This document shows, in pieces, positions 11,000-47,913 of a DNA stretch of 64,000 nt. The stretch's first letter is position 1. Every line of letters starts with the position of its first letter. The stretch comes from Batrachochytrium dendrobatidis JAM81 (lineage: Eukaryota > Chytridiomycota > Chytridiomycetes > Rhizophydiales), in assembly GCF_000203795.2 (NCBI RefSeq), contig NW_006281099.1:2359774-2423773 (forward strand). Direction: 5' to 3'. Under the pieces are notes generated by a model. It did no database searches, had not been told where the DNA came from, and saw nothing but the letters and a program-made list of their open reading frames with translations. The translations under genes were made by a program, and so were the position numbers.

Positions 11000-11001
11000 T
11001 A

Positions 11002-11415: not shown

Positions 11416-11550
11416 TAAAAGTGTCCATCAATATAAAAGATCTGTATACTTGGATATTCATTAGAAACCCATGACCAAGAGCATTATTTCAAACATGCAG
11501 ATGCATTCGTTATTTTTATGATGTATATTAACAATAATACACATATTTAG

Positions 11551-15244: not shown

Positions 15245-15287
15245 GCCGGCACTGCTACATGTGATATCATTGATCTGAAATAATTTA

Positions 15288-15713
15288 TAGCCATATTCAC
15301 GTAAAATGGAACACATCTCTATTTATCTTGCAGTGATTGTGTCCATTTTACTTTGAAATAAACAATGGCTGGATATTCGTTGTTTCCCTACTACAAATTG
15401 ACTTTACTAGACATTCTCAATTTTTTAAACACAACATCCATCGTATGATGCACACAGTCAAACTATCCATTTTCTACTTTTTACACAGCCGTGCATTGCA
15501 TAATCATCAAGTCTGAAACCAAACTCACTCATTACAGTTCAGATATTGGACTCGATTGTCTCGAGTCTGTACAAATTCCAACTGCTTTATACAGAAATAA
15601 GCACAAGATTGGTGAATTTTGTCAAGGAATTCAGAGGGTACAATGTGTCTAGTAAACCTCATCAAATTATTATTTCATGAGATTGAAATCCTTACTTTGC
15701 GTGAATACGGCTG
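15288..15713 (+). mobile_element. MITE-like element, copy 3 (complete)
   Basis: 426 bp with left end TAGCCATATTCACGTAAAAT and right end TTTGCGTGAATACGGCTG, flanked by TA on both sides. It begins 43 bp after the stop codon of the VPS9 gene. The right 343 bp are nearly identical to copy 2 at the other end of that gene, while the left ~80 bp differ clearly. That mosaic pattern suggests gene conversion or recombination. The coiled-coil gene on the other strand ends just beyond it. Confidence 0.8.
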
Positions 15714-15760
15714 TAATAGTAGATTCTTAATAGTGGCCAAATGAAATGCATGGTTTATTA

Positions 15761-23400: not shown

Positions 23401-24161
23401 GATCCACATGACAATATTTTGGATCAGCGAGTATGTTATATTTGATAATCCGTTAGATTCTTAAGCGTGCTGTAATCAATCATAAAGCAATTGGCGTTGA
23501 GCCTGTATTAATAGCTAAGATAATTGGTTTTCTGATATCACTATAGCCCATTCTTCCTAAGCATGCTGTCCCAAAACAGGGTGTCCGGTTTAATGAAAGG
23601 TAAAGATTGCAATATTTTGACTGTATTTATTCTGTGTAATATTCACTCTGGTATTTTTGGCTGTAATAAATAGTATTATAGGGAAAAGTAATATTGGCAA
23701 ACGACAAGATGCAAGAGTGAGTTTTGCGTACTTGCGTTGACTCGAATCTATTTTAGTCCTTTCATTGACGTGAATTCGACTAATCCTTTATAACATGTGG
23801 TGGAATTTAAATAATAGGAACGAGATAATGGGCCGAGACCAGTTCCACTGGGTGAATACGCTACGTGGAAAGAATCACTCAGCAGTTCACAAACGATTTT
23901 TAAACCAGAAAGGTATCCCAATTTTTCTATACAAATTGCATCACATATTCAAAGCGTGCAGTCACCATGGAGTACTGAAAATACTAACATATGCCTTGAA
24001 ATCTAAATTCTAGATATTTCCAAGCCCGAGGTTTGAACGTCACGTTTGATGCAGATCATTCAGCCGCAGTAATAGGCTTGCCAAGTAGCAATGAGCTTCA
24101 AACTCACGGACATGTATTTTTTGAGCCAATTCTTATCAGACAGAATCGTGATAGAGTATGA
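20463..24161 (+). CDS. WD40-repeat protein, unknown family
   Basis: Exon 1 begins at ATG 20463 (MPLYTGAEINLPNFHIPS) and ends before GTATAA. Later exons encode WD40 blades: ILAICIGKMIHVWN, MATCGNDQRIIVWSLEQW, IYSSSDDGRVVKWDW, IIVCGRSDGYVTVWN, YLATGASDNTCKIWN and VTGCMDSTCRLWSSRRGELL. After the propeller comes a helical part and an acidic patch (NDYDDEDDELGARPP). Short exons from about 23.3 kb follow (DLKAKRDVKPIFLRQLAVET, PILPKHAVPKQGVRFNER). The last exon (24010-24161) gives YFQARGLNVTFDADHSAAV and ends at TGA 24161. About 14 exons. WD40 scaffolds serve many complexes. A flagellar role is possible but not shown. Confidence 0.65.
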
Positions 24162-24447
24162 TTAGATGTTTTTAGTGTACAAACAGTCTGCGTATTAAAG
24201 TGAAAGCATGAACTAACAGATTACTTGAATATTTATGAAACGGAATTTCTGCGACATTAAAACAGGATGAAAAGCATCAAATGGTAGTAGGTGAGCAGGT
24301 TGCTCATCAAGACGGGGTTTTAGGACAGCCAAGTTTAGCATGATGACTATTTCCCAAAGTAGCACTGGCCGTCTAGAATTTAAATTGAAAATAAATTTCA
24401 AGTGATTCTTGGACTACGATTCTGCCAAGAATAATGGTGGCAAATAT

Positions 24448-24861
24448 TTAGCGAGTTGGAAATATGAATTTGTGAATTTCATCACCATTGAATCGCTGCA
24501 TATTTTGTGGTACAGTAAATACTAGATTAAACAAGTCCAAGTTTTTGAACATTACTCAGGCTGGTGATGAGTTGCACTTTCACGACCAAAGCCTGGTATT
24601 CAAAAATCCCTCGATATTGCACGACACTCACAACTTCAGATGAGGTATTCTCAATAACCAACACCAATAATCATGTATGTAACAGACATTACCATGAGTA
24701 ATCGAGTTATAATTATCCTTATAGATCCACTTGAAGCATTTCTAATCAAAAATGATAACGTACATGAGCCCCGTTGTAAGCGTCCATCATGGCGGACATG
24801 ACCTTGATTTTGGCACATTTCTTTGCAAACCCATCATTGGAATCTTGAGAGATATGCATAT
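24448..24861 (-). CDS. Small three-exon gene, unrecognised (about 87 residues)
   Basis: A consistent in-phase model exists. Exon 1 runs from ATG 24861 (MHISQDSNDGFAKKCAKIKV, then MSAMMDAYNGAH) to a GTACGT donor. Exon 2 starts after TTATTGAG near 24647 (NTSSEVVSVVQYRGIFEYQA) and ends before GTAATG. Exon 3 starts after AATCTAG (IFTVPQNMQRFNGDEIHKFI) and stops at 24448. The frames look protein-like and the phases agree, but I do not recognise the product. Its start lies only about 40 bp from the edge of the 0.93 kb direct repeat, so upstream exons may have been separated from it. Confidence 0.35.
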
Positions 24862-24898
24862 CAATAATGATTGATGGGTACTTGTGTCAATAATTCAT

Positions 24899-25820
24899 TA
24901 GTATGCATTAATATGCCAGTCAACAGTCATATTCAAAATCAAGTCAATAATATGTAATGAATGTCAAATCACATGCAAAGTTTAATTATGGATTCAAGTC
25001 GTGAAATTTCCATTTTGATAAATTGATTCATTTTTCCCAAATAAAATCCTAATGAACAACTCGACTCATCACATATTAAAACTACTACACTCCCACATAC
25101 TCAAACGATCATTTACCACTACCAACAGTCATGCAGCAACATCCAAACCCCTGCATGACAAGGTTCAAGATCATATCAGCAAAAACTACTTGCTGTATGG
25201 TGCAATGTTTGGAGTAGCTACTATTCTTGGTAGTTTCCTCTGTAGTCAGATCAAAGAGACAGAAGTCAAACTCAAGTCCGATGTCAGTGAAATCAAGACT
25301 ATGCTGACTCCGTTCATCGTCAAAGTCAAGATGAACAAGGAGAGACTTGATGACATCAAAAAAGACTTGAACAAGAGATGACGACTGATTGCTGATTGTA
25401 AATATACTAGCATTATTATAATATATTTAAAATAAAAACATGAATGTATCAATGACTGTAATCATGTCAACGAGACCAAAATCACTCATAATTGCCATGA
25501 CCAGAGTGTTGGATGATCTGTGAGTATTATTAGATGATTGTGTAGTTTAACTTGTAGAGTTGATTGTCTCATTTGTCTCACAGTCATGACTCACACTCAT
25601 CATGACTCAGTCGTGCGTTCCGATTGAATATTCAACATCCGATCGTGTGAATTGAATAAATTCAATCAACACATTGCATGACTTGATATCAACACTGCAA
25701 TACAATGAATTATCAATACCAAATTGTGTTACAAACACTAAACATTGTTGCTTGAATGTGTTGTATTCAATCCATAACAAACTACTAATCGTGTATTTTG
25801 AACCATTCATCCACATACAA
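24899..25820 (+). repeat. Direct repeat R1 (~0.92 kb)
   Basis: From about 24899 (GTATGCATTAATATGCCAGT) to about 25820 this segment is nearly identical to 37555-38482 in the same orientation. Only scattered single-base changes and one 9-bp difference inside the gene are visible. Each copy carries the whole small membrane-protein gene plus ~150 bp upstream and ~440 bp downstream. The two copies bound the accessory block that holds the CRN gene and the retrotransposon. Confidence 0.9.
25052..25381 (+). CDS. Small single-pass membrane protein, copy in R1 (109 residues)
   Basis: The ATG at 25052 gives MNNSTHHILKLLHSHILKRS followed by FTTTNSHAATSK. This is a basic, hydroxylated, acid-free N-terminus like a mitochondrial presequence. 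NYLLYGAMFGVATILGSFLC (about residues 45-64) is one membrane span. The C-terminal 45 residues are charged and helical (KETEVKLKSDVSEIKTML, then NKERLDDIKKDL). I do not recognise a named family. The topology resembles small inner-membrane proteins of mitochondria, which is inference. The second copy at 37705 is nearly identical, and both are intact single-exon frames, which favours a real gene. Confidence 0.6.
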   Translation: MNNSTHHILKLLHSHILKRSFTTTNSHAATSKPLHDKVQDHISKNYLLYGAMFGVATILGSFLCSQIKETEVKLKSDVSEIKTMLTPFIVKVKMNKERLDDIKKDLNKR

Positions 25821-26250
25821 TAATGTGATAATATGTTGTCAATATACAATAGTACACTATACACATGGTTGATGCAATCAATTGATGTGCATGCATGCAT
25901 TAAACACAAGTATGACTGATTGTGTGTACCAAACTGGTTATTGATTGTTGTGATGATACATCGAACAGTTGAATATTTATAACATTACAATGTTGTATTC
26001 ACATAAAATCAAACATTTGTATGTTGCAGTGATTGTCAGTAATTTGATTTGGAATACAAAATGATCAAATGTTAAGTTTGCTGGACATTGACTGAATTGT
26101 TTATTTGTGATATTTGGTTTGTATCAAACAAGAGTTGGGAATTGAGCAAGTGTCGACAATGTGGAATGTATTGAAACTGTAATTTCTAAATGAATGAATT
26201 TTAAAATAAACTCGGGTGTTGAACCACGATATGAACTTGTACAAGTATAT
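25821..26250. mobile_element. Diverged MITE-family relic (copy 5) and AT-rich spacer
   Basis: From about 25990, TTGTATTCACATAAAATC and the following TTTGTATGTTGCAGTGATTG align with the left end and interior of copy 4 (GTATCCACGTAAAA, CTTGTATTTTGCAATGA). Many differences are C-to-T or G-to-A. No right end is seen. No gene was found in this spacer. Confidence 0.45.
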
Positions 26251-29200
26251 TCTGGTGGTGTTACAAGTGTATTGATCAACTGTTGTATAACAGTCTCGGT
26301 GATGGTGCCGGAGTTGTGTTTGTTACCAATGGTACGCTATCAGCACAAACTCGATTGATCCAACAGTCAGTATTCTGTGATTGGTCCAACTCAAGTATCA
26401 GCACCACATGGCTGACAACCCATTGTTGTCAGTTACATCGAGTGTTTGTCCAAATAGGTCGATTCAAATGGGTTGCATATAACCGACTAATCCAGCATTC
26501 ATCCATTGTCAAACAACTATAATGCACAATACCACCGAGTGTGCAATTACACACGCACTGATCAGTCGTTTCACAGTATGCATCGGTCAATGTCCAACAT
26601 ATGTGTGTCTGCAACTAAATTGCAGTCCATGACACATCCACACGATCCAACATGACAAATCATGTATCATGAGTCCAAGATTGATCAAAAACCTGATCAC
26701 GGTAAATCCAGCATAGTGTTGCATATCAGACTCGATATATCGAATGACAGTTGCACACTTGCTGATGGTGTACAGCGTATCAATCACAATACATGCACGG
26801 TATTGCATTGCAGTCATTGGATGATAACTGGTTGCAATGTGATACCGATCGACATACATCAACATGGTGTGATGTGACCATAACCATAGTGGAATGTGTT
26901 GGAATTGACATTGTGAGTTGACAATCGATACACCATGCACATGACTGGAACATATGCATTTGAGTGTGGTTTGGTTGGTGTCAGGTTGATCATGCAATCA
27001 CATCGGTGCAACGAATGAACAAACTGATGGTGATCTGAACCCATTTCAACAACAAGGAGTTGACAGTCATGTATTTGCATGCATTCAATATGTGTCGCAC
27101 ACCGTTGTTGACTGTTGACTGTGTATGCAGGTCAAGTTACCAACAACCACCAACCAGATCCAGTGCATACATGACCATTACTAGACTGACTGCCAAACAT
27201 ATTCGTGTCCAAAAGTTGATTGTGAGTTGGTGGTTTGCAAAAACCGGACACAACCAACATGCTATTGGATACAGCAACCTGATTATAGTCCAGTCGCATG
27301 GTGTGATACAGTGGTTCATGCAATACAATACCCAGATATTTGTAGTGTTGAACACGACGAATCTGTTGTCCGTGTAGCATCATATCAATTAGTAATTCGG
27401 AATCAAAGTGTTGTAACCACGGAAACTGAGTATGTTGCATTTGACTACACCAAAACTTGTTTGACATTGTTCCATTCATTGTGCAAGTACACCAGATGCC
27501 AATTGGAGTGACTGATCAGAGTCAACAAATATCACGATATTGTCGGCATACATGAACCCTCACATTGATGGTGATTTACACAATACTCATGCAATGACAA
27601 TCGGTTGATATCATCGTGTATGTTGTTGATGAACACGTTGGACAACAATCCGACAGTGGACATCACCACTGGACTCCATGCTCAAATGGAAATGGGTTAA
27701 AAACCAATGATTCAGTTTGAGCACAAGCTGATGAGTATGTGTACAGCGATGTTAACAAGACCAGTGTGCGTGGTATCAATCACATGTGTTGCAGTTATCA
27801 TATCAAGGCACCAACCATGACAGTGTTGAATGCATTTTGAATGTCAATCAACACAACAATAGTATTGAGCTGCACGCACTGCCGTTGTTGAACAATATCG
27901 ACTAGTGAACCAACTTACACAACACACTTGTTTGGTTTGAAATCAACCATGCTCAGTGGTGACGAGTTTGTTGAGCACCACGATCCATCAATGTGTGCTT
28001 GCAAGACCTTGCATACCAGTTTATGACACACATCAATCAGTATAATACCGTGTTTGTCGTTTGTATCAATGTGATCACCGTTATTGTTGTCGATATATGC
28101 AATCAGCACAATGGGTACAGTGTATGCAGACTACCAGAAGATCGCATAGTGATCTTCAACATATTGCCTGAACTGTGTGTAGCAGGACACGATCAAATGG
28201 ATTGGGTGGTTCATCAGATGTATCATCATCAAGTGTATACAATGCGACTCGGTAGATTATGACCAATATCCTGTTGTTTTTCGGGTGTTTGGTGTGAACC
28301 AGCTGCTGTATCACATCAGCTAGTCGATTTCAAGGTATATCCGAGTCGAGATCAGTTGCATCGTCACGAATCGGAACCAGTTTGGATGGTGGAAGTGGAT
28401 CACGTATATGCCAGTACTGCCATTACTGCAAGTCAAGTAAATGTCCACTATCGTCCATAGCAAGATGCAAGTAGTGATTACTCGGTATGCCAAAAATAAT
28501 ATCACTGCTGTACTGAATGATACGATTGGCATCACATCGTATAGTGGAATGGAATGAAATGAAATGGAGTGATGGCTGTTGTGTGTGTTGCACCACCAGG
28601 CATGATTCGAGCTGCTGCAAATGTCATATCAAAACGATCATCAATACTGTCCGGTCAAGTGTGTCAGCAAACTTGATCCAGATCATATATTCATTGGCGC
28701 ATTCAAGTCGCTGGATTGTTGCATTGTGTTTGTCCCAGAATGCATCTAGTTGGCTGCGACAGAGTTCATTGTAATTGTCACGGATACTTGCTGTAATGTA
28801 CATCGACATTCCAGTGTTACCATGTCAAGTTGTCCGTTTGGTTGAGCGATACAGTCGACGTTTATGTTCTCGAGCAGTATGTGCATGTGCATGCAGTTTA
28901 CAGTCATTCACTGTTGCATTGGCAGCATCCAATAACTGAATGCATAGCTCGTGTGTGTCCGTGTATGATCCATCAAACGCTGCATATATTCCACCAATCG
29001 TGAACATTGCAATCCGATCATAGGCATATATGCAGAGTTGTGATATGTCAGTTGAATGAGTGGAATGGACTGAATGAGTTGGTGCATGTGTATTAGTGCG
29101 GATGCAAGTGTAAATGACACACCGTCAACAACCGCAATGTTCATGTCTACACGAGCAGATTCTACAAGTGTTTGTTCAGTCTCGTCACACACAAAGTGAT

Positions 29201-31150
29201 TGATAGAGTGTCAATGACATGCAGTCCTGCTCACTCGAGTGATGTTACTGTCTGCATATTGCCAACATACTGCATGACAGTCAAACGCAGTATTCATGCG
29301 TGTATGATGCGTTGTAATGACACATATTCAGTGTTCCAATCTGCAAACAGTAGCACTGATGAGTGATCGTCAAACGGAATAACTGCTGACAGAACATGTT
29401 GAATGGCAGACAAGACATTTCGCGTTTGATAGTCGCATGCAGCCGAGTGTCCAATGTACACAGCCAACAGTCCAAACACAGTCAGGTGTAAAGTTTGGAA
29501 TGTTTGCGACAATTATGGTGCCATAAACAGTCATTTTGTAAATCCAAACCATTTGTCAATACCGAATGGTGTCTCGATGTTCGGGAACAGTTGCCGAGTG
29601 TTGCAATACATTGAAACCACACATTGTGTGCTTGAAACTGTCCGTTGTAATGCAAGTCTCGGATAATCCACATAGTCGGTTTGGCTGAATATATGTCAAA
29701 GTAGTGAGTGTTTGCTGGAAATGTTTGACACATTGACTGACAATATTTGACAACAATTAGGAAGTGGTGGGACAGTGAGGATGTCGTTGGATGCCTGCGT
29801 TGACAGTTTTTGTGTATGTGTCAGTTGTTGTACGGATGATTGGTGACAGAGTTAATGGATAGTGTGTGCGGAACATGACTCTGACACAGTAATGCGGACT
29901 CGTGCACCGAGTTGAGTTGTCCAGCAATCGATTTTGGAAATGTGTTTGATGTGATGGTTTGAGATGAATGCCAAATGACCACGAATGTTACCCATTGTCA
30001 TGGCAGTTGATTGTTGATTCAAAACGTTGTTTGTTTGGTATTAATGGTTAGAGTGTCACTCATTGACCTGTCAGATCAGCAAGTGTTATTTTGGTGAGTT
30101 TCGTGTTTATTGTAGTCACATCAACATCAGCAGGTTGCACTACGGATTTGCTTGACAGAGTTGCAGATCCAGTTGGATTGATAGACGAGCAACTGTGCAA
30201 ACAACTGTGCGAGTTGCAGGATGTTTGAGATCCAACAAAACACTGCTTGCACACAAGTTCATGAATGCAGATTGTCAGACTTGACCATCAACTCGCAGTA
30301 TAAATTGCCTGTACGACAGTTTACATGCTTACCCATCAACAATAAACCCACATAATCAGTAAACTGTCAACGAGCAGCCAGCTCAATGGTCGGGTTGATG
30401 GTTTTTGTTGGAGTTTCTGGATCAAATCTGACCTGATTTGTATCGAGTTGGGTCATGACTACAAGTTTGACAGCAATAGATTGATCCACTAATAATCTGG
30501 TCGTGTTGTTGATTGTATGGATGTTGGTAATCCGTTGCAGATTGATACGGAATGTGACCAGAATACCACAAAGTTTATTGAGTGTGCACATTGCATTCGA
30601 TGCAAAACGCAATAAACAAATGCGAGTTGCAGCATTCATTCAAGGTTCGACACCAGTCGATACAGCATTGACCGCAATGGCATTTATGTCAACAATTGCA
30701 CGATTACGGAATAAGTCGATTGTTGCTTGGCATTCCGTATCGACAGTCTGCGTGTGTGTGCAACGTGCTGTTGTCGCATATGAACAACTTGGATTGACTT
30801 TGTGGACAAAACACAGTCACAGTTGCGGTGATGTCCACAGTCGTGGAAATGGTTTTGAGTACCACAACTGGTATAACAACTACAGGTGTTGGTGAGCAAC
30901 CAGAGTCCAGTTTGACCAAGATCTGTCCCAGTAATGATCGAATGACATTGTCGTGTTTGGTCATCATGACAACAATGTCATTGGTTTGACTCTGCAACTG
31001 ACCAAATGCGCTAGTGACAGCGTTTTCAATTGAGTTCATATTACTTGTGAGGATCGTGAACATATGACGGCACTGATAGCCGACATTATTGTCAAGTGTG
31101 TTACAGTAAATCAAAGACACAAAAGAATGAATCAATATTCGATTACGTCA
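26250..31150 (-). mobile_element. Decayed non-LTR (LINE) retrotransposon
   Basis: Read on the minus strand, pieces of a LINE appear in order, broken by stops and frameshifts. Near 30.7-31.1 kb is a helical ORF1-like piece. Near 29.3-29.5 kb, LTVFGLLAVYIGHSA and VLLFADWNTEY resemble the apurinic endonuclease (GDWN-type motif). At 27862-27800, VVLIDIQNAFNTV is reverse-transcriptase motif A with the AFD aspartate changed to Asn. At 27676-27601, GVQ-W-CPLS and then LLSNVFINNIHDDI is motif B. At 27550-27539, YADN stands for YADD. Then come QTSFGVVKCN near 27450 and YKYLGIVLHE near 27340. Cys/His-rich sequence near 26.5 kb may be the C-terminal zinc knuckle. The block is unusually rich in CA/TG. 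The element is dead; borders are approximate and no poly(A) tail or target duplication was found. Confidence 0.75.
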
Positions 31151-31322
31151 TTTATTAACAAGTGAGTGAGTGTGTTTATAATATGAAAAAACAGTGAAAG
31201 AAACCAAGAATACAGAAAAAGGCTATGCGGATCCCAGTTTAAACGTCATTGTTAATGGTTTTTGATTGTTAAACTATTCAGAAATGTCTACGATCGCAGC
31301 CTAAACATACACAGCCCACACA

Positions 31323-31403
31323 TTCACACACTACTAATGTCTCACACAATGCAAGTCAACACTCTCACACTAGTAATGTCTCACATTAATGAGACATTAA
31401 TTC
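31323..31403. promoter_or_regulatory. Repeated TAATGTCTCA motif with a perfect palindrome upstream of the CRN gene
   Basis: TAATGTCTCA (31374-31383) and TGAGACATTA (31390-31399) are perfect inverted copies around a 6-bp spacer. An extra direct copy, CTAATGTCTCACAC, lies about 40 bp upstream. The palindrome ends 157 bp before the CRN start codon. It may be an operator-like site, a transcript hairpin, or the end of a neighbouring mobile element. A related CAACACTCTCACATTA string occurs near 34777, beside the second retrotransposon fragment, which favours the mobile-element reading. Confidence 0.45.
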
Positions 31404-31555
31404 TGGTGTAAATTTAACTAATTTCCAAATATTTAAATCGTGTGAATTGTCTTGAAATATCCCAAAATTTTGTTATTTTGACTCGATTAAAAAGTCGATT
31501 TTTGTTTTACAATTTGACAAATAAATTGCTTTTTTACTCTTTTTCTTTTCATAAA

Positions 31556-33346
31556 ATGTCAAAAAGATATCTTAATGTTGAATACGCTGGAACCAGAACC
31601 AGAATCGACATTACTGACTTTGAAGACCTGAGTGACGCTCAGGATGCCATCAAGGCAAAGTATGGCCCTGCTATGGCTGACATTGGTGCTCCTCAACTCC
31701 AGCTCTACGACCAACAAGGCCAGCTTATCGCAGACCTAGATGACATAGCAATTGAAAACACTCCTCAGTACTACAAAAAACGTACTCGAGGAGGCTCCTG
31801 TGTTGTTATTGGTGTTTTACCTTTACCTCCAAGACAACCTACTCAAACTGACCTAGATTCAGCATCTGCTGCAGCCTCGACCTCTCACTTACCAGCAGAG
31901 GAAGGCCCCTCTCGCAAACGACAACGTACCGAGCCTGAATCTGAATCTGAGCCTGAACCCGATAATTTGACAACCCGACTAAAGTCGTTTGCAAATGCCC
32001 AGCTGGTCGATGAATGCATTCAGTCTCAAGACCAAAAACTGCTCCCATATCCTCAAAACGAAGTTCAAAAATTATATGTCAGAAAGTGCTATAAAGATGT
32101 CTTTAAATTGCTTCTGGCTCAAATTGGTGATAAGAAGAAATCATTTGCAATATCTGGGACGCCGGGCATTGGAAAGTCGCTATTCTTTGTCTACATTTTG
32201 TACCGCCTGATCAAGGGCTCTCGTAAGAAAACTCTGTCTCTAAAGCCAAACCGAATTGTTTATCAAGTGGGATCTACGTACGAATGCTTTGACTTGCAAC
32301 AACAATTCGTCGCCAGGACCACGAGGTTTGATGCGGAGGAATTGGTTAGGAAACAAGATACATTCTACGTTATTGATGGACGAACGTCTGAACCGCTCGT
32401 TTCGTCTTGTATTGTCTTGTTCATTTCATCCCCCCGTTCGGAATGGTACAAGGAATTTGTGAAGCAGAAGATGGCCAAGGAATGGTACTTTCCTGTTTGG
32501 ACTTTCAAAGAGTTACAGGCTTGTTGGCTCCACTGCTATCCGGATTTGCGCTCTAAAACCTTCAATGAGAGATATCGCATCTATGGTGGTGTAGCTCGTT
32601 CTGTCTTTGATACTTCATCAGATCCAATCAAGAAAGCTTTGGCCGACGTTAATGCAGTCAAAGGGACACAAAGCATTGGAGAACTGACCAAAGCATTTAC
32701 GACATCTCACACTTTGCTTCATGTTATTGTGTCAGACGACGGGAAGTACGAACTCTTGCATCTTGATATCGCTTCAAAATATGTTGGAGAAAAACTCTGG
32801 CAACGTCATTCTTCTCAAATGATTACCAATATACAGGTAATGCTTGGTACTCCAGACGAGATTTCAAGATATTTTTTCGAGATATACGGACACAGGGTTT
32901 TTTCTACTGGTAGGAAAACTCTCAAATGCAGATGCCTGGAAGATGGTAAAGCGACAAAGATTACTTTGGATGCACTCAATGGTCAACGAACTACATTTGG
33001 AAGAGATACTATCCCTACTGCTGCAGCACTTGATGGCAACTATTACGAACCGACAGATGACGATAATTTTCCAGCAGTTGATTCACTCAGTCAACAGGGA
33101 ATGTTTCAATTTACAGTTGCTGCTGAACATCCAATTCGCGGAGTTGATATTCTTACAGAACTGTGCAATTTGTATGATGAACCCAAACTTTATTTTGTGG
33201 TTCCACCTCGCCGATTTGAAGGGTTCGGGGAGCAGAGTTTCAAACCAATTGATGGCACAGAGCAGGTACAACCCATTCCTGGATTGAAACAATACGTTAT
33301 AAAACTCCCTATAACGCAATCAGATTTGAAGAGTAGAAAGTGGTAG
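31556..33346 (+). CDS. Crinkler (CRN)-type protein with P-loop NTPase domain, 596 residues
   Basis: Single-exon frame. I chose ATG 31556 because MSKRYLNVEYAGTRTRIDIT matches the start of chytrid CRN-like proteins and follows a pyrimidine-rich leader; the frame is open upstream but has no earlier ATG. Residues 1-90 form a ubiquitin-like header. A Pro/Glu-rich linker with a basic nuclear-localisation-like RKRQR (120-124) follows. The P-loop NTPase domain has Walker A GTPGIGKS at 201-208 and a hydrophobic strand ending in Asp-Gly (FYVIDG, ~280) that may be Walker B. The last ~200 residues may hold the nuclease-like domain reported for many CRN proteins, but I cannot assign catalytic residues. 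There is no obvious signal peptide. CRN proteins are proposed host-targeted effectors or genome-conflict NTPase-nucleases; the role here is unknown. The frame is intact, unlike the decayed element beside it. Confidence 0.8.
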   Translation: MSKRYLNVEYAGTRTRIDITDFEDLSDAQDAIKAKYGPAMADIGAPQLQLYDQQGQLIADLDDIAIENTPQYYKKRTRGGSCVVIGVLPLPPRQPTQTDLDSASAAASTSHLPAEEGPSRKRQRTEPESESEPEPDNLTTRLKSFANAQLVDECIQSQDQKLLPYPQNEVQKLYVRKCYKDVFKLLLAQIGDKKKSFAISGTPGIGKSLFFVYILYRLIKGSRKKTLSLKPNRIVYQVGSTYECFDLQQQFVARTTRFDAEELVRKQDTFYVIDGRTSEPLVSSCIVLFISSPRSEWYKEFVKQKMAKEWYFPVWTFKELQACWLHCYPDLRSKTFNERYRIYGGVARSVFDTSSDPIKKALADVNAVKGTQSIGELTKAFTTSHTLLHVIVSDDGKYELLHLDIASKYVGEKLWQRHSSQMITNIQVMLGTPDEISRYFFEIYGHRVFSTGRKTLKCRCLEDGKATKITLDALNGQRTTFGRDTIPTAAALDGNYYEPTDDDNFPAVDSLSQQGMFQFTVAAEHPIRGVDILTELCNLYDEPKLYFVVPPRRFEGFGEQSFKPIDGTEQVQPIPGLKQYVIKLPITQSDLKSRKW

Positions 33347-34430
33347 TTGTATTTTACAACTGAAATGGCATATTTTCAACCATTCCAACCATTCCAATTA
33401 TTTGATAATTCAATGTTAATAAAACTGGCATCATACAATTGTGTCCATTCAAGGGATTGATATGCATTTAGCATGAAAAGTCCAAATTCAAGTTTACTAT
33501 TGTAGCATACGCTTTTTGACAAATAATGGCTCTGTTAACACATCCTTGTACCATCCAATCGTGTCCGATTGAAGCATCAAGTATGAGTTTGGCAGACAAC
33601 TTGCAACTTTAATCAACTTGTATACGGTAAGCATTTTGATAATGTCGGCATTTGTCAGGATATCACACCTGACAACTTTGAATCGAATTTAGCAGTGATT
33701 ATAGGTGAAAACACCAATCTAGCACATCAACAATTTCAGACAATTCCAGACAATCCGATTCTGATTAGTTCTAAAACCAGAACTCACATTGTAACCACAA
33801 ACCAAATGCGTTCAATATCAATCACAATCATCATGGACGAATGTATCAAAGTATGTCGTCAACTTTTGAATATTTTAGCAGTCTTGCTTAAAACAAGTGG
33901 TATCATCCAGTGCACTACATATACTACTCATGGTCATTGACAACTGATTGTGTAGTAATAGTGTTAGTGTATTGTGAGCAAATTATTGATGATGGAATAA
34001 CACACATTTTGGGCATGATACTAGAAACACACAAATTTCAAATAACTGCGCAACTATATGTTCAAACTCTGCTCCAAATATATGTTGTTGTATACAGCAA
34101 ACCTGGTAAAGTGTTGTATTTTGTCATGGCTGCATTGTTCCAAGACATAATTCGAGGCTTGTTACAATGGGTTACTGGATTTGATATCCAATAGATTTGA
34201 TAAAAGTGTTGCAATTGACATTTATGTTTGTGGATAACAATATTTTGGAATCAACTCGTTCAATTTGGAAATCAGTTGGATTTCTTGCTGATATCAATAT
34301 CAATGTCAGTTCAACTCAATTGATTGGAGTAGCACTCGAGTGCTTGCAGTATTGAGTTTGGTTCAAACAGTGATCCACAGTGACACACTGATTATTATTT
34401 CAGTGAAAATGAGACATAAATGATCATTCC
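33347..34430. other. AT-rich spacer downstream of the CRN gene
   Basis: About 1.1 kb with only weak open frames (33695-33940 and 33910-34194, both +) that overlap in different frames and show no recognised domain. They may be remnants of a decayed element. No confident feature. Confidence 0.35.
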
Positions 34431-34439
34431 CAAAACAAG

Positions 34440-34820
34440 GAATCTGAATGACTGAAATGTAGATCGTGGGCATATGACTGCATGTTGATGGTCATCATTA
34501 TTGACAAGTAGATCACAGCAAATCAAAGATACAAAGGAATGATCCAATAAACTAATTGCGTTGTTTATTAAAGAACGGGAAGAGTGTGTTTTTATAATAT
34601 GGGAGAGCGATGAACAATACCAGAAGGAATGTATGCGAGCCATCGTTCAAGCATCATTGTTGAGGATACCTAATTACTATAGATCTTCCATCCGAGGTGA
34701 CTGGTGATCACAACTGATGATCGCATCCCAGATATATACAAAGGATTCACTCAGTGAAAATCAACAGACTTGACATCTCAACACTCTCACATTACAATGA
34801 CATACGCTATTAACTGTCCA
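34440..34820 (-). mobile_element. Second 5' fragment of the non-LTR retrotransposon
   Basis: The stretch from about 34465 to 34610 parallels 31060-31190. It shares a CATATGAC start, AGCAAATCAAAGATACAAAGG against GTAAATCAAAGACACAAAAG, GTTTATTAA and GTGTGTTT..ATAATATG, in the same order and spacing. Shared CTCACATTA strings near 34790 extend the match. Only the presumed 5' end is present, so this is a truncated or rearranged copy. No coding capacity remains. Confidence 0.5.
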
Positions 34821-36257
34821 ACAATATCGAGTTTAATTTGGCGGATATTAATCGGTGTTGCTTGATCATCAAATGGCATACATGTCTAATGACCGGTATC
34901 AGAAATGGACACCATCAATCTATCAAAATGACACAAATGGAGCATACATTGCAACTGATCATATATTGAGTTGTATAGCAACATATTGTGTAGTAATCAT
35001 GTGTGATCCATTGTAAATCATAACTACATGTCTAGCATACTTTGTGTCAATTACTTGTCGGTATAAAATGGATGATTTGTCCAGTTTGTATTCAATCAAA
35101 TGTATTGTAAAAATGGGGTTTTTGATCAACTAATACTATATGACCATGAATGATGGAACTGGAACATGATTACAAGTATACACATTCAAACATCTGAACA
35201 ACTCTGATACAATCAAATGTATTGTCACTTGTCAGTTCTACATGACTGTATCGGATCTGTTCAAATACCTGTGATGTGTATATCTGCAACTCAAGATCGT
35301 GAATGATGTTTGTAGTGCAATGTCTGTCATGACAACCCATATCAGTTATACAGTGTGTATCATATTTTAACAGCACTGATCATGTTTTGATGGATTGTTA
35401 TACGTCGCAACGCTTTGAAAGTCAATTCTACCACGCAAGTCGTGAGATTGCAAGTCGAACAATATCTCGTGTGGTAGTGCTTTCATATGGAGCAATATTG
35501 TATCACATCAGAACATTGTATTAGTCGACAGGCACACGATTGTGATGGTAATGGTTTGCAGTTTGATACACGTTTGACAAATGAAACGCAAGTTTATTTG
35601 GACAATTACGAGTGTTGGCTGATTGCTGCAAGATTGCACCAAGATTGCTGATATTACAACAACCACAAATGTGTCCAGGACTGCTGTGAGGTTCCAGTAT
35701 ATGGACAGTTGGTAGGATTACAACAAAATGGCATTTGCAAGTTTTATGTCATGGCTATGTGGGATCATGCTGTATTGATATGTCCATCTATGATACAGTG
35801 CCAAAAATGTTGAATGAACAATGGGTAATGAACAATGAGTAATAGAAATATAATTGGTGAGCATTTTTCAAAGCATACATTAGGTGACATTCCGTATAAC
35901 AATATCAACAAAAACAGTAGTTTAATGGATGAATCTAGAAATATTATACCATCGACATTGGATTGCTACTCGAGACTGATTGGTGGTTGATCAAATGGAA
36001 CAATGAAATATTTGACTGGTTGTGATTAAACATACATTACAAATTGTAATTTACAACGTGGTTGTAGTTGGTAAACCGATAATGTCATGCATCTACAGTA
36101 AGATCCAAACCCAAACTAATCCACTCCAATCCAATCCATTCTAGTCCAGTCCAGTCCAGTTCATTCGTGTTGTTTTGTAATCACTGGATCGTGTAATATT
36201 TCATTTAGTGACCAAGAGTTGTCAGGAATCAATTGTTGTAATGAGTGGTTCAAATTG
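34821..36257. repeat. Gene-free AT-rich stretch with short pentamer repeats
   Basis: No convincing coding sequence. Around 36118-36168 there is an imperfect 5-bp array (CCAAT/CCAGT type: TCCAATCCAATCC, then AGTCCAGTCCAGTCCAG). The stretch is CA/TG-rich like the retrotransposon, so it may be an older decayed element. Confidence 0.4.
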
Positions 36258-36425
36258 ATGTTTTGTGTGTTGATCACAATGATTGTGTATTACAAGATCA
36301 CTTGCGGTATTGATTTGTCAATCGACGAGTGTAAGTCACTCGAAAAGAGTTTACTGGACTGTATGATTGGAAACAATACCACCACTTTGGCACAATTGAT
36401 ACCCGATAGTGGATTGACTGCATGA
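36258..36425 (+). CDS. Doubtful short frame with signal-like N-terminus (55 residues)
   Basis: ATG 36258 opens MFCVLITMIVYYKITCGIDL, then a short Cys-containing tail ending at TGA 36425. The N-terminus is hydrophobic enough for a signal peptide or anchor. The frame sits inside decayed repetitive DNA with no upstream or downstream gene structure, so chance is a good explanation. Recorded only because it is intact. Confidence 0.15.
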   Translation: MFCVLITMIVYYKITCGIDLSIDECKSLEKSLLDCMIGNNTTTLAQLIPDSGLTA

Positions 36426-36578
36426 TTATTTGGCAGTTGGATCAACTCTTGTATCGTTGGAACCCAATTTGACAAGCCAGCCATATCCATACAAAACAGA
36501 CGACTCGAATGGCGTGTTTGTAGCCAGTGTTATTATTTGAACCAGTCTTTCAGTTTTTCCAACCTTTCCAACACTTTC

Positions 36579-36620
36579 AATCCACTTGATCCACTTGATC
36601 CACTTGATCCACTTGATCCT
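36579..36620 (+). repeat. 9-bp tandem repeat (CCACTTGAT)n
   Basis: Four to five perfect copies of CCACTTGAT in a row, starting at about 36582. On the minus strand the unit reads as three codons (Lys-Trp-Ile), so it leaves an open frame there, but nothing else suggests a gene. Confidence 0.85.
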
Positions 36621-37554
36621 TGTATCAAGTCGGAACATTTAAAACATCTACCATAAACCATTACAACCAGTTTTACATATTGGATCTATAAAAATGTTGA
36701 ACAAGCTCAAACCAGCCATTGATTAAATCGAGTTGTTAAATGCTGAGTTGCATGACTGGTTGTGGATAGCTTATTATTGACTACGCCATTCAAATACCGA
36801 TGATCGAAAACACCAATATTTCAATACACGATTCGATTGGTAACAGTGTGGTTTGGGTATTTACTGTTGTCAACCGATTTCAAGTCTTGTTGATAAATGG
36901 TTGCACTTTTGACAATCAGTATATCCGCAATCAGTTGAAATTGGTTTTGATACTGTATGCCAAAAACCTATTTAGTGTTGGTGTGATTCAGGTTTTGAAA
37001 TACTTGTATATTTAGACATGCCAACAACACATCAATGCAACAATACACTGATTGACAATATATACGCTGAATAATCCAGATATACTTGATACTGTATTAG
37101 AACCAATCAAGTTCAACTTTGATTTGAATGTCATGCACAATAGTAAAACTAAACGTGTGATATCAACGATCCACCTAGTGTATGTTGTATATCGACATCA
37201 TGATGCATACCACGATCACCACATGATGGTGCACAAACATGTTTGACATGTGTCATGTAAACACTCGATATGCCGTGTATTGGCATCTTTTATCATAAAC
37301 CAACAGCAAGTATATTTGACTGTAGCGATTTTTACTAGCATATTACATCAATCGACTATGCTGATCGACTGTCATACACACATAGTATACCATAGCATGC
37401 AATATCACAGTATTAGTGGAATGTATGATACTGTTGATGACAGATCCCAACAGAATCTGAATGGTTAGATTCGATATTCAAAGTAATGTATTGCTGTATG
37501 TATGTATTGGTCAAATTGTAATACAAGTAATAGCAATGCATTAGTATGCATTAG
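36621..37554. other. Gene-free AT-rich spacer before R2
   Basis: Only short frames (36800-37015, 37052-37246, 37250-37468, all +) without recognised motifs. At 37540-37565, just before R2, a TAGTATGCAT decamer is repeated about three times; R1 has only one full copy of this unit, so the array may mark a recombination edge. Confidence 0.4.
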
Positions 37555-38482
37555 TATGCATTAATATGCCAGTCAACAGTCATATTCAAAATCAAGTCAA
37601 TAATATGTAATGAATGTCAAATCACATGCAAAGTTTAATTATGGATTCAAGTCGTGAAATTTCCATTTTGATAAATTGATTCATTTTTCCCAAATAAAAT
37701 CCTAATGAACAACTCAACTCATCACATATTAAAACTACTACACTCCCACATACTCAAACGATCATTTACCACTACCACCACTACCAACAGTCATGCAGCA
37801 ACATCCAAACCCCTGCATGACAAGGTTCAAGATCATATCAGCAAAAACTACTTGCTGTATGGTGCAATGTTTGGAGTAGCTACTATTCTTGGTAGTTTCC
37901 TCTGTAGTCAGATCAAAGAGACAGAAGTCAAACTCAAGTCCGATGTCAGTGAAATCAAGACTATGCTGACTCCGTTCATCGTCAAAGTCAAGATGAACAA
38001 GGAGAGACTTGATGACATCAAAAAGGACTTGCACAGGAGATGACGACTGATTGCTGATTGTAAATACACTAGCATTATTATAATATATTTAAAATAAAAA
38101 CATGAATGTATCAATGACTGTAATCATGTCAACGAGACCAAAATCACTCATAATTGTCATGACCAGAGTGTTGGATGATCTGTGAGTATTATTAGATGAT
38201 TGTGTAGTTTAACTTGTAGAGTTGATTGTCTCATTTGTCTTACAGTCATGACTCACACTCATCATGACTCAGTCGTGCGTTCCGATTGAATATTCAACAT
38301 CCGATCGTGCGAATTGAATAAATTCAATCAACACATTGCATGACTTGATATCAACACTGCAATACAATGAATTATCGATACCAAATTGTGTTACAAACAC
38401 TAAACATTGTTGCTTGAATGTGTTGTATTCAATCCATAACAAACTACTAATCGTGTATTTTGAACCATTCATCCATATACAA
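37555..38482 (+). repeat. Direct repeat R2 (~0.93 kb)
   Basis: Second copy of R1, same orientation, about 12.66 kb downstream. Identity ends at about 38482 (CATCCATATACAA), where R1 continues into different sequence. Differences seen by eye are a handful of substitutions plus a 9-bp insertion in the coding frame. High identity over both coding and non-coding parts points to a recent duplication or conversion. Confidence 0.9.
37705..38043 (+). CDS. Small single-pass membrane protein, copy in R2 (112 residues)
   Basis: Same product as the frame at 25052, with three extra Thr in the FTTT tract (in-frame insertion of ACCACTACC-type triplets) and C-terminal HRR in place of NKR. The membrane span NYLLYGAMFGVATILGSFLC and the charged C-terminal helix are unchanged. 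Two intact copies suggest that both can be expressed, but no independent evidence of function is visible. Confidence 0.6.
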   Translation: MNNSTHHILKLLHSHILKRSFTTTTTTNSHAATSKPLHDKVQDHISKNYLLYGAMFGVATILGSFLCSQIKETEVKLKSDVSEIKTMLTPFIVKVKMNKERLDDIKKDLHRR

Positions 38483-38783
38483 CTCAACAAAATAAGTATA
38501 ACAAAGGGTATTCCTATTAACTAATATTTGCTATTTGAAAAACAAAAGATCATTTTGTCAAATAATCTAGACGGTAACAGAAATCAAAAGAGCAGCAAAA
38601 GTATGACCGGTTTCCAAAACATCAAGTAGCTGAACTCGATGATGGAAAATGCATCAAAAGATCAATTAGATAGCAGGGGGTCAGTCTAAAAGATGAAATG
38701 AGATTGTTAATATCAAAAGTGTAATGAAGAGTTGGTATGGAAATAACAAATTTCATGCAAAGAACCCATATAATGAAATGAAT
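38483..38783. other. Short spacer between R2 and the RA-PH gene
   Basis: Unique AT-rich sequence from the right edge of R2 to the stop of the minus-strand RA-PH gene. It probably contains that gene's 3' untranslated region. Nothing else seen. Confidence 0.5.
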
Positions 38784-41700
38784 CTACAGTCCAGAAAGAT
38801 CCACAAGTGGTTTAATTTTGCCCTTGCGTGATGAGCCAGAAGAACGTGAACGGCTTGTATTGCTGGTGCGAGATGGACTATCTGATTCTCTGTTAGTATA
38901 CTCTGAATATAAACCTTCTGCTCGGTCTCGCGTAGGCTGGCTTGCATTAAATGACCCTACTAATGCAGAAGGCGGTGGTGAAAAAGTTCGAAGTCCAAGA
39001 TGGCCCGTGCGACTTGCTTCGCGTGCTTCGTGTTCTCGACGCTCCATTCTGCGTCGCTCTTTTTCTCGACGATAGGCCTCTTCAGCATTTACAGAAGTAA
39101 AGCTTTGTGACTGGGGACTATCGGAAGAATACACTGTTTGATTGCCTCCAGTGCTGCTTGTCGTTGCTGCCTCTCTTGCGCGCCGAGCAGCATCGGATGA
39201 GCTGAATTGAGAGCCACTAAATGAAGTGGTAGAGAGTGGAGAGTCATTGGTTCTAACAGGAGACGCATCTGACTGTGGATTCCCGATAATAGGAAGCTGA
39301 GCAGCAAATCCATTTGAAAAAGGGGTTCTTTGAAAATCACCATGTGCATTTGAAAGAGTGCGCAGCCCTGAATGATTGGGTGACTGAGATTTGGTAGAAG
39401 TTCCATTAGTTGATGTCTGCATTGCTGCTGTTCGCCGCCGCAGTGCTTTAGATGGTATCTCGCCTTCATAGTCTTCAAACATCTCTGGACAATCCATGAA
39501 AAGATGTTCATTTCTGGCAAGTCGTAGTGCTAGCACCCAGTCATACAGTCTCTCACGCTTCTCTACTGATATAAATTTACAGTAGTCGTGTTTGTTTTTG
39601 TATAACGAGACACTACCGGTCGACCGCAATGCAAAGCAAAACTTGGTAGGCGTCTTTTTTTTGTGCTGGGACAGTGTGTATACATCAAACTGTGACAGAT
39701 TGCACAAAACTGTTTCTGTAGACTGTATCATCCAAACATGGCGTCCATTTAAAACAAGAAAGGGGTGAGCTAATGTAAAACACAATAGTGCAAGCAGAGC
39801 AACTCCAAAACGACAATCTCTTACATCAGCCTCTTGAAAATAATAAATGATAGAATCTCTAAGCACGCAAAACCGTTTATGCCATTTTCCAGGCTTCATT
39901 TCCAAGTATAAATATCCTTGAATTCTAGGGAATCTACCGGTAAGCGACTAAACTCCAAGAAAATGGATTTGTTTAGCAATTGATCGACAAAACATATCAT
40001 CATCTGCATGATAAACTACCTTGCACGAAAGAGTAACACGGTAACCATATTTTTTCATGACAATGGCATTGAGAGAATTGGTTGTATCCCAGGCAGAAAT
40101 AACATCCGTTACGATTTCCCAATCACGAACCGGTCTCTCTAAAAAGCAAATTTAAAATAAGTATATGAAACAACGTCGCCATGAGTTGGTATTAAATCCT
40201 GCAAGCTATAAAAACAAACTAATCAAAAGCTGTGCTTACCAATACCCATATCGTTACATAGTTCGAATAAAGCCCAATCAGGAGATGCATCTAGATGAAA
40301 ACTGTCAATAACATTTCGCACTACCTGATCAGCCGACATTAACGAGGTAAGGACAAGTGTTTTAAACGATCGTGCATCTTCAATGTATATACGAGTAGTA
40401 ATCTAAAAATATAGTATCTTGGTTAGTAAACGGTAATGTCATACAAGACAACTTCCTATCAACTGCACTCAAATACTACACATGTATTTAAAGTAGCAAG
40501 TCCTTACTTTCTTAACATTGGCTTCGTTTAGCTTCGATATGATCAAACTAATTTTGTCTTGTCTCAATTCCTGGGCATCTTTATATTGAGCAACGTATTC
40601 GTTAAGCACAACTTGAGCAAGACGAGACTCGGCTGATGCACTTGCATGGCGAGAAGCTTCAGTGTTATGGCCATCTTCATCATCCGATCCTTCAGGAAGA
40701 ACAAATCCAGGAATAACAGGAGTAGGGGACAGGGCAAGAGATCGATTAGTCAATCGCTGTATAGGCTGAATAGAGAGATCGTCGGGATGTGAGTGCTTAA
40801 ACGATCGGTTGCGGCGAATGATTTTATTAAGCACATTGAGTAACCCATCCATGTCCTCGTAATCTTCTACAGTGGCATTCTGAAAAGCAGATTTTGAAAC
40901 CTGTGAAACTTCAGAGGATTGAGCATAAGAAGCATCATCAAGTGTTTTTTGTAAAACATCCTCGTCTGATGGAAGTTCAATATCTTCATCCTTGTTTTTT
41001 GGTTTGGACTTGATTCTTGATGGAGGCTTGGGCTGTGCTGCATCAGACACTTTGTACTCGGAATCATATCCAGCTTTTTCTGAAGCAGAATTTTGGGCTG
41101 AAAAACCTATGTCACTATTGGTCCGAGAATTATCCGATTCAGTGTTGGTGTTGACGTGTTCGTCTGATTCAGATCCGTCTTCAGAGCTACTATACTCGTC
41201 TTCAGAGGAGTATATATTATATCGATCATAGTCTTCACCATATAGTTCGCGGTAATCATCTGAATCGTAGTTATCTTCTGCATCCAGGTCAGGAGCAAGT
41301 GGTAAAATATCGGGTTCGACCTCTGATGTGCGTGGTTTCAAAATAGACGACTTTCGACCAATCGATTGCCCAAAATTAGGGTACGATGAAGAGAAGGAAG
41401 ATACGTTACTTTTTCCAGAAGTCGCAATCGAGTTGCTACGGAGCATGGCAATTGGCTCAGCTGATGCAGACATATCAAACTGCGAGATTGAAATGGGTGG
41501 ATCGTCCTCATCAAAACTAATGGCTCGCACCATAGTAGGTGTAAGTGAATCCAAAGACAGAGGCGTTTGTCTGGTATTGTTTATCGTCTGAGAATCTTGA
41601 GTAGGCGAAAAAACAGGACTATCAGACATAGAAAATGAAGCAGCAGCAACCTCATGATAGGGAATATGAATATGGGAGCTGCTTGCAGCTACACGAGAGG

Positions 41701-45205: not shown

Positions 45206-45671
45206 TGTAACGCTGATATCGCTATTTTTTGAAGAAAAACTTTTGGGTAAAAATACGAATTGCTTGTTCAAGAATGTCCATTACAATAAAGCATTAATGA
45301 CAGCTAGAATCAAAATGCAGGCTGATCTAGTACACAAAAACTACTAGCACTCTCTCATTCATTGCATTTGCACCTTTTTTCCTATTCATTTATTGTCAAA
45401 CGATGTATTGTATCCATTGGTACTACTCATTTGATACAGTTTTGGTGTTTAAACCATCGCAGCAAACATTCGTACATTATAAATACTCGACACTAAATAT
45501 AGTTTTTGTTCAAGAATATTTATCGAGCCAGGTTCCAAATTCAATCAAATGATGTACAGTTTCACTTTCCGCTGTACTCATGTATAATAAACAATCGACT
45601 TCATGAAATAATTCTCAATTTACTGAACATTGTTTTTTGGACTTTTAAAGTTTGCTGATCTTTCTGTTGAT
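45206..45671. other. Intergenic, no gene seen
   Basis: AT-rich 5' region of HIS7 running up to the inverted MITE copy 6. A few pyrimidine tracts but no identifiable regulatory site. No open frame of interest. Confidence 0.5.
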
Positions 45672-46027
45672 GATTGACATGTAGAGTTGCATTTCTGAAA
45701 TGTGCAATCATTGTTCTCTTGAACTAGAACGCGAATGTATCCGATATTAGGATATAACAAAATGGAGTTTGTACAGAGTTTGATAGTCAAACTCAATATA
45801 TGGATTGTAATGGATAATTTTGATGATCGTACAATGTATGGATATTCCAAAAGTGGGGAAAGTGATAGTTTGATTGTGTGGGTATCATATGATGATGATT
45901 GTGTTTGAAAACATTCAAAATATCGATTTGTGGTAGGAAAGTACACACATATCCAACCATTGATGATTTCAGAAGCAATCACAAGATAAATTATAGAAAA
46001 ATACTCCATTTTACGTGAATGTGACTT
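45672..46027 (-). mobile_element. MITE-like element, copy 6, reverse orientation
   Basis: Its terminus, read from 46027 leftwards, is AAGTCACATTCACGTAAAAT. From there to about 45672 it matches copy 7 (46534 to about 46893) as an inverted repeat with few differences. The other terminus is lost: similarity stops near 45672. The surviving end lies 43 bp before the start codon of the DHHC gene. Chance 61-codon frames in the two copies encode nearly the same meaningless peptide, which shows how similar they are. Confidence 0.8.
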
Positions 46028-46069
46028 TAAATTCACTCGTGTAAACAATCCAATTCAACCATCACTACA

Positions 46070-47913
46070 ATGGCAGTCAGAGAAAGTCCTGCTTTTCTTT
46101 GGGCAATCATATTTGCAGGTATCACAATCCAGCACACTACTGTTAAGGTGCCTTGCATTCTTGGAAATGAGTCAAGACTATCAAAACGATCTTGGCTGGA
46201 TAGCATGCTCCATTTTAACCACCATATGCCCTGCTTCATAGCATGCATTGAAGCAATATCATGTTTAGATGATAATGGAAATACTGACTATTTCTCCTAC
46301 GCTGTCTTTCAGTCACATATCTGCCTAGTTCAACATATATTTACGTTTTAGACCCATGGCTGCGACCTTATTCTATTTCAAGCTACATTATCTTACTAGT
46401 GTGGATATTCAATTTGGTGATGGTACCAATCAACTATTGGCTTTCATGGAGAACTAAAGCAGGAGAAGTAGAACATGGCTGGAACACTTTTGAAACTAAC
46501 GAGGATCTCATGTGAGTGGTTCTGCTTGTATTAAAGTCGCATTCACGTAAAATGGAGTATTTTTCTATAATTTATCTTGTGATTGCTTCTGAAATCATCA
46601 ATAGTTGGATATGTGTGTACTTTCCTACCACAAATCAGTATTTTGAATGTTTTCAAACATAATCATCATCATATGATACCCACACAATCAAACTATCACT
46701 TTCCCCACTTTTGGAATATCCATACATTGTACAATCATCAAAATTATCCATTACAATCCATATATTGAGTTTGACTATCAAGCTCGGTACAAACTCCATT
46801 TTGTTATATCCTAATATCGGATACATTCGCGTTCTAGTTCAAGAGAACAATGATTGCACATTTCAGAAATGCAACAGTTGTTTACATGTCAATCATCAAT
46901 GTCATAGTGGTTGGTTTGAATGAAAAAAGAGCTGGAGATTGAGCAAGTCCCAAAGATTTCATATGTACTGAAACTGCGATATGAATATCCGGTCAATTTC
47001 TGTTTAGTGTTTTATTTTACGTGAACAGGGTTGTAAATCCAAAGTCGTAGTAATGCGCTATACAATTGAACTTTAAATGTTGGTAATTAACTCGAGAATT
47101 TATATTGTATTTGCTATAGGAAGATGCTGGATAGCACTGAAGAAGATATACATAATACCGAATGTCGGTATGTCGCTTTGCCATTGATATTAAGAGTAAA
47201 TTTAGATTCTTGTGTGCTGAAATAGTGCATCTACTTTACACTGACTAGTTGTCAAACCTATATAATTATAAATTATGCATAACCTACTTATTGATAGACT
47301 ATGTCGGCATGAACGACCTGCTCGGGCACATCATTGTCGCAAATGCAAGGCCTGCATCTTGCGAATGGATCATCACTGTCCGTGGATTTACAACTGCGTA
47401 GGATTTCGTAATCAAGGCCACTTTGCAAGATTACTGATTTACACTGCACTGTTGTGTACGTTGACAATTATTATGGTTTTTTTGCGTCTATACGCCTTGA
47501 TTTTGGCGATTGAAACTCCCGAGAATTTTAACATCACGCAAGGCGAAGTAAGTTAATGTGTATCAACTTTTTATACACGGCTCAATCTGGAGTTTGTAAT
47601 CAATGGCATTGACTCTATACTTTGTGACCAATTACAGGTTATTATCACCGGCATTAATCTCACAATTCTTGTTCCTTTAACAAGTATTATCGACATGTTG
47701 GCATTTAATCAGATACAGTTGATTGTGAAAAACATTACCACAATTGAAGATTTGGATTTGCAAGACAGTGTCATGATGGGAATTCCTACGGTCAATATAT
47801 ATGACATGGGTTGGTTGGAAAATACCAAGGCTATATTGGGATCTAGATGGTGGCTGTGGTGGATGCCTCAGGATATGGAAGGAACTGGTGTGGTATTCAA
47901 CACTCGGGTTTAG
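46070..47913 (+). CDS. DHHC palmitoyltransferase (PFA4-like)
   Basis: ATG 46070 gives [16 protein letters not shown], a likely first membrane segment; the exon join just after it is uncertain. The exon from 46352 ([20 protein letters not shown]) supplies another span and ends at 46511. After a 608-nt intron come 47120 to ~47168 ([16 protein letters not shown]) and the core exon with [20 protein letters not shown] and the catalytic DHHCPW, followed by two spans ([38 protein letters not shown]). The C-terminus, with [20 protein letters not shown], is typical of fungal Pfa4. These enzymes S-acylate membrane proteins in the ER; yeast Pfa4 modifies chitin synthase Chs3. The long intron contains MITE copy 7, and an inverted copy sits right before the gene. 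Confidence 0.8.
46534..47033 (+). mobile_element. MITE-like element, copy 7, inside an intron
   Basis: Left end AAGTCGCATTCACGTAAAAT and right end ATTTTACGTGAACAGGGTTG, with TA on both sides (46532-46533, 47034-47035). 500 bp long. It lies wholly within the intron between 46511 and 47120 of the DHHC gene, whose donor (GTGAGT) and acceptor (TTGCTATAG) are outside the element, so splicing should remove it. Its first ~360 bp are an inverted copy of copy 6. Confidence 0.85.

What the first reader, a model, noticed from the sequence alone, without database searches (positions are those of the whole stretch)
24899..38482. Accessory block framed by recent 0.93 kb direct repeats
R1 and R2 are nearly identical, in the same orientation and 12.66 kb apart. 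All DNA between them (retrotransposon, CRN gene, gene-poor CA/TG-rich DNA) differs in character from both flanks. Recombination between R1 and R2 would remove the CRN gene and leave one repeat, so this is a candidate for presence/absence variation. Alternatively, an ancestral tandem duplication was later filled with elements, but the old decayed retrotransposon beside such fresh repeats argues for repeat homogenisation.
Basis: partly seen in the sequence, partly recalled or inferred. Interest (0 to 1): 0.75.

Follow-up and report, generated by a model that had tools for sequence, protein, structure and literature searches.

The report
Duplicated crinkler-gene unit in frog chytrid
The two matching stretches are copies of a small repeated gene at the seams of a duplicated 12.6 kb unit carrying a crinkler (effector-like) gene in the frog-killing chytrid fungus, and sister copies of the unit differ in parts of the crinkler gene while the DNA around it stays much more alike.

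Summary
The repeats are real: R1 24893-25820, R2 37546-38482, same strand, 12,653 bp start to start, 97.9% identical. The genome is Batrachochytrium dendrobatidis JAM81. R1/R2 are not a private pair but 2 of 11 R copies in the assembly (one copy is split). R encodes a 109-112 aa protein whose 4 database hits are all Bd. The interior is duplicated too: R-X-relic-CRN-Y-R recurs at C1:2518926-2540894, and the unit stands head to tail, period 12,601 bp, at C1:3829872-3847900. Private R1-R2 homogenisation is not required, although R1 is R2's nearest relative. The striking part is the CRN gene: around it three sister units differ by 0-8% per 150-bp bin, inside it by up to 45% in two of them (up to 12% in the third), with dS per 60 codons from 0 to saturation and one header exchange. 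That points to fragment exchange among CRN genes, as known in Phytophthora. Presence/absence among isolates could not be tested.

The parts
24893..25820 (+). R1: copy of the dispersed R sequence; ORF 25052-25381 (109 aa)
   Evidence: 4 of 4 protein hits are B. dendrobatidis
25821..26239 (+). X: link between R and the relic; first 270 bp or so also follow R in copies that lack the relic
26240..31047 (-). Decayed retroelement-like relic (weak RVT_1), including the dispersed module 29878-31022; 14 other matches of at least 3.6 kb at 93-96%
   Evidence: 40 of 114 candidates scored; for RVT_1; for the module
31048..31555 (+). CRN upstream region, shared with the 5' part of the coding region by 40 places in the genome
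   Evidence: 40 of 63 candidates scored
31556..33346 (+). CRN (crinkler-like) gene, 596 codons, open
33347..34458 (+). CRN 3' region, end of the stretch shared with several dispersed copies
34459..37545 (+). Y: 3.1 kb, in full (34602-37480 searched) at 4 other places, each followed by R; its first 140 bp (34462-34601) are 75% like the CRN upstream region
37546..38482 (+). R2: copy of R; ORF with 112 codons; right end differs from other R copies

Best explanation
The block is one copy of a duplicated unit of about 12.6 kb in the order R gene - X - retroelement relic - CRN gene - Y, closed by a second R, i.e. 1 unit plus the start of the next (or the end of the last). Shown: the same order with R at both ends at a second place, a head-to-tail pair with the same period at a third, and R joined to different left and right partners among its 11 copies. 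Inferred: unequal or ectopic recombination between repeats made and spread the units, and conversion among CRN genes exchanged pieces of the CRN gene inside a more slowly diverging frame. R1 x R2 exchange could delete the unit but R1/R2 have no special status in the R family.
For: 11 R copies (12 strong matches, two of them halves of one copy, plus one 50-bp match). Second R-to-R block C1:2518926-2540894, with an insertion and an N run inside. Head-to-tail pair at C1:3829872-3847900, relic starts 12,601 bp apart. Y followed by R at 4 of 4 other full Y copies. Left partners of R: Y 5, 72-bp Y tail 2, other 48-bp end 2, truncated/cut 2 of 11; right partners: X-relic 5, X-other tail 3, truncated 3 of 11. 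CRN patchiness.
Against: R1 is R2's nearest relative and one site is unique to the pair, so some local conversion is possible. The sister units have different end points, so no fixed unit boundary exists. The recombination steps are inferred from one assembly; no reads or second isolate were examined.
Confidence: 0.75

Rival explanations
1. One reading: an accessory block bounded by a repeat pair that was homogenised recently, prone to presence/absence by R1 x R2 deletion.
For: R1 is R2's nearest relative, 11/928, and one site is unique to the two; geometry allows deletion.
Against: R1 is as close to another copy (11/928) and nearly so to others (11/838, 10/757, 6/528, 13/928); R is low in divergence in pairs without this locus; 2 sites by position against 1 by locus; interior is a duplicated unit. 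Deletion product not seen, but one assembly could hardly show it.
Confidence: 0.15
2. R1 and R2 are the long terminal repeats of one large transposable element with the CRN gene as cargo.
For: R at both ends in two blocks (this one and C1:2518926-2540894).
Against: End points differ between the two blocks; no target-site duplication seen at the junctions; R sits inside a longer array or alone with other neighbours in other copies; R carries an ORF. No polymerase gene beyond a weak RVT_1.
Confidence: 0.05
3. R1/R2 are an assembly duplication.
For: Repeat-rich region of an older assembly; N runs occur in sister regions.
Against: 11 substitutions and a 9-bp indel between R1 and R2 and different junctions; the window has no N.
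Confidence: 0.05

Closest known systems
CRN-like gene family of B. dendrobatidis in gene-sparse, repeat-rich regions (PMC5364385, passages seen; PMC12204190, abstract and passages; PMC11797018, abstract and passages)
   Same: Same species and gene family; expanded (162 CRN-like genes in PMC5364385), copy number differs among strains (27 to 108, PMC12204190).
   Different: The passages I saw do not describe a repeated unit with R, relic and Y, nor CRN part exchange inside it; I did not read the full texts or supplements.
CRN fragment recombination in Phytophthora sojae and head-to-tail, helitron-associated CRN copies in P. infestans (PMC3726527, passages; PMC5289972, passages)
   Same: Different header on the same body, same header with other bodies, small fragment exchanges, duplication near mobile elements, head-to-tail copies.
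   Different: Oomycete, not fungus; here the exchange is seen inside sister units whose surroundings are 0-8% diverged; no helitron signature was searched for beyond inspection of junctions.
M36 protease genes flanked by non-functional LINEs in B. salamandrivorans (PMC9926174, passages)
   Same: Expanded virulence-type family beside decayed LINE sequence; authors suggest repeats as substrate for ectopic recombination.
   Different: Other gene family and species; the text holds no occurrence of CRN or crinkl-.

Membership tests
CRN (crinkler-like) gene | Bd CRN N-terminal motif MPKR[YF]LNVEY (PMC5364385) | tested here: met
   Window protein starts MSKRYLNVEY, 9 of 10 positions
CRN (crinkler-like) gene | Pfam crinkler N-terminal domain PF20147 | tested here: not met
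   No hit at E up to 1. PMC12204190 reports that PF20147 fails on Bd CRNs in general; relatives such as P0034 and P0040 (62-63% identity over 78%) carry it
CRN (crinkler-like) gene | Homology to named CRN proteins | tested here: met
   Hits named crinkler/CRN in Bd JEL423, Rozella, Aphanomyces (151 hits among the 7,997 scored candidates, 120 listed)
CRN (crinkler-like) gene | Delivery into and action in host cells | not testable with these tools
   No functional data
Tandem/segmental duplication unit | Same order of segments at other places, and head to tail with the same period | tested here: met
   C1:2518926-2540894 and C1:3829872-3847900, period 12,601 against 12,653 bp
LTR element | Constant repeat ends and target-site duplication | tested here: not met
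   Ends differ between copies; none seen at the junctions printed
Presence/absence accessory block | Missing in some isolates, leaving one R | not testable with these tools
   No second whole Bd assembly was available; database proteins are clustered at 90%, so this locus's CRN (95% to P0005) cannot be followed apart

The most novel reading that the evidence does not exclude
Bd keeps a set of similar 12.6-kb frames (R gene, relic, CRN upstream region, Y) in which CRN header and body pieces are exchanged by ectopic conversion, with R as a recurrent junction: a repertoire-shuffling arrangement for an effector-like family in an animal pathogen.
Probability: 0.3. Interest if true: 0.65.

Novelty: new member of a known kind. 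Interest (0 to 1): 0.42.

Why it matters
CRN copy number differs among Bd strains (27 to 108, PMC12204190), yet how the genes multiply and change is open. Sister units with a like frame and unlike CRN pieces make that measurable: the frame gives relative age, the CRN gene shows exchange. It also warns that repeat-rich units like this one will be collapsed in short-read comparisons of isolates, a problem PMC12204190 itself reports for these families.

Tried and rejected
R as terminal repeats of an element: rejected, ends vary and no target-site duplication was seen. Private R1-R2 homogenisation: not required, not excluded. CpG- or RIP-like decay as source of the CA/TG richness: singleton C>T changes are raised at CpG, CpT and CpC alike and lowest at CpA, so CpG decay alone does not explain it; slower loss of CpA might help keep it. 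PMC9926174 reports no RIP signature in Bd. Relation of the relic to the RVT_1 locus on C4: none (the second such locus, on C12, was not compared). Module 29878-31022 as a complete transposon: 5 of 5 fetched stand-alone copies share sequence beyond its left end, and the 4 of 5 whose right end could be shown share it there too, so it is part of a larger element. RNA families in 24000-39500 and tRNAs in the window: none. Structure prediction of the R protein: not run, only near-identical relatives are known. Literature: 8 searches; from the titles and abstract starts listed, and passages of 7 papers, I saw no description of this unit; that is not proof of absence in print.

Full report
Observation. 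R1 (24893-25820) and R2 (37546-38482) are direct repeats, 97.9% identical over 937 columns with 9 gap columns, 12,653 bp start to start; 11 substitutions in 928 aligned bases and a 9-bp indel. The finding's coordinates are right to within a few bases.

Genome. The window lies at C1:2359774-2423773 of a 23.49-Mb, 33-contig assembly. Two proteins named for B. dendrobatidis JAM81 sit on contigs of 4,429,270 and 1,702,824 bases, the lengths of C1 and C15, so this is JAM81.

R is a dispersed gene-like family. A genome search with 24850-25900 gave 13 matches: 12 strong (96-100%, the window's own included) and one of 50 bp. Two strong ones are halves of one copy split by about 650 bp, so there are 11 copies. 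In 9 of 11 the ORF is open for 109 or 112 codons; one is split, one is cut by an N run. The protein search gave 4 hits among 6 candidates, all B. dendrobatidis, none with a Pfam domain; the best Pfam hit, DUF2703, is under its cut-off. Over 10 copies (the split one included) mean pN/pS is 0.50, but the coding part differs more (3.2%) than the non-coding parts of R (1.5% and 1.2%), so constraint on the protein is not clearly shown.

R meets different neighbours. Left: Y in 5 of 11, only a 72-bp tail of Y in 2, another 48-bp end in 2 (R1 here and the left R of the sister block), truncated or cut in 2. Right: X and the relic in 5 of 11, X and a different tail in 3, truncated in 3. Repeated exchange in or near R would give such a mix; this is inference.

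The interior is a duplicated unit. The relic (26240-31047) has 14 other matches of at least 3.6 kb at 93-96% (40 of 114 candidates scored). Y (34602-37480 searched) recurs in full at 4 other places at 95-96%, each followed by R. The order R-X-relic-CRN-Y-R recurs at C1:2518926-2540894, with an insertion and an N run inside. At C1:3829872-3847900 the unit lies head to tail, relic starts at 3847900 and about 3835299, 12,601 bp apart; the second of the pair carries a CRN start only about 81% like the one here. The right flank beyond 38482 is single copy; the left flank has old relatives within 24260-24850.

Homogenisation. R1 differs from R2 by 11/928, from other copies by 6/528, 11/928, 11/838, 10/757, 13/928, 16/928, 17/927, 20/817 and 27/928. 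R2's nearest relative is R1, and one site has a base found only in R1 and R2 among 9 copies with data. Pairs that leave this locus out show R at 0-4.5%, X at 0-3.5% and the first 1.2 kb of the relic at 1.0-9.0%, so low divergence of R is family-wide. In the four-way comparison of the two R-to-R blocks 2 sites follow position and 1 follows locus. I conclude that private homogenisation is not needed, though some local conversion is possible.

The CRN gene. It is an open frame of 596 codons at 31556-33346 whose start, MSKRYLNVEY, fits the Bd CRN motif MPKR[YF]LNVEY at 9 of 10 positions. Pfam gives no hit above cut-off. Three sister CRNs are open too, 583, 603 and 583 codons from ATG; a fourth neighbouring one shows two separate open stretches. 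B is identical to JAM81 BATDEDRAFT_84908 (P0005), A2 to JEL423 BDEG_21402 (P0006), and A1u is 99.2% identical to a JEL423 model (P0007). The protein of this locus is not listed apart, which clustering at 90% may hide.

CRN pieces are exchanged. In 150-bp bins wholly outside the CRN ORF the three sister units differ from the window by 0-8%; inside it by 0-45% (A1u, A2) and 0-12% (B). Further out, the 500-bp bins of R, Y and relic compared lie between 1.0 and 8.7%, leaving out the end bins that reach the CRN region. Per 60 codons dS runs from 0 through 0.74 to saturation (window against A1u), from 0 to 2.6 (window against A2) and from 0 to 0.22 (window against B). A2 has another header on much the same body. 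Patches of saturated dS beside patches of zero are hard to get by point mutation and selection alone; exchange with other CRN genes is the simplest reading. The upstream-plus-header DNA is found at 40 places (40 of 63 candidates scored); in the long query 5 matches end together at 31854, CRN residue 100, and 12 of 40 in the short query end at 31716. End points at 31860 are the end of the query and say nothing.

Known context. CRN genes recombine at the end of the header and by fragments in Phytophthora (PMC3726527, PMC5289972, passages seen); Bd CRNs lie in gene-sparse, repeat-rich regions (PMC5364385, passages); LINE relics flank M36 genes in Bsal and are proposed as substrate for ectopic recombination (PMC9926174, passages). 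This locus fits those patterns.

Not shown. No isolate comparison, no expression data, no direct view of the recombination events.

Noticed in passing
31048-31860 and 39 other places in the genome: CRN upstream-plus-header module; at least 16 of 40 places lie within 75 kb of a contig end (contig lengths known for only some contigs), suggesting a subtelomeric bias.
   Followed up: partly
29878-31022: 1.15-kb module with 18 matches of 1.14-1.17 kb at 96-97% outside the longer relic copies (40 of 114 candidates scored); part of a larger uncharacterised dispersed element, and directly beside the CRN upstream region here and in other CRN loci.
   Followed up: partly
34462-34601: 75% like 31052-31185, i.e. 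a relic of a second CRN upstream region just downstream of the CRN gene; relatives of this stretch recur elsewhere.
   Followed up: partly
24893-38482: Strong CA/TG excess of all non-coding segments of the block, not explained by CpG decay; C>T changes are least frequent at CpA.
   Followed up: partly
25052-25381 and the other R copies: Amino-acid differences among R copies cluster in one short stretch after the hydrophobic segment (KETEVKLKSDVSE in R1 and variants of it): conversion tract or selection, not resolved.
   Followed up: no
10997-11422 with 15283-15720; 45667-46030 with 46531-46899: Other repeat pairs in the window: direct, 94.5%, and inverted, 96.2%.
   Followed up: no
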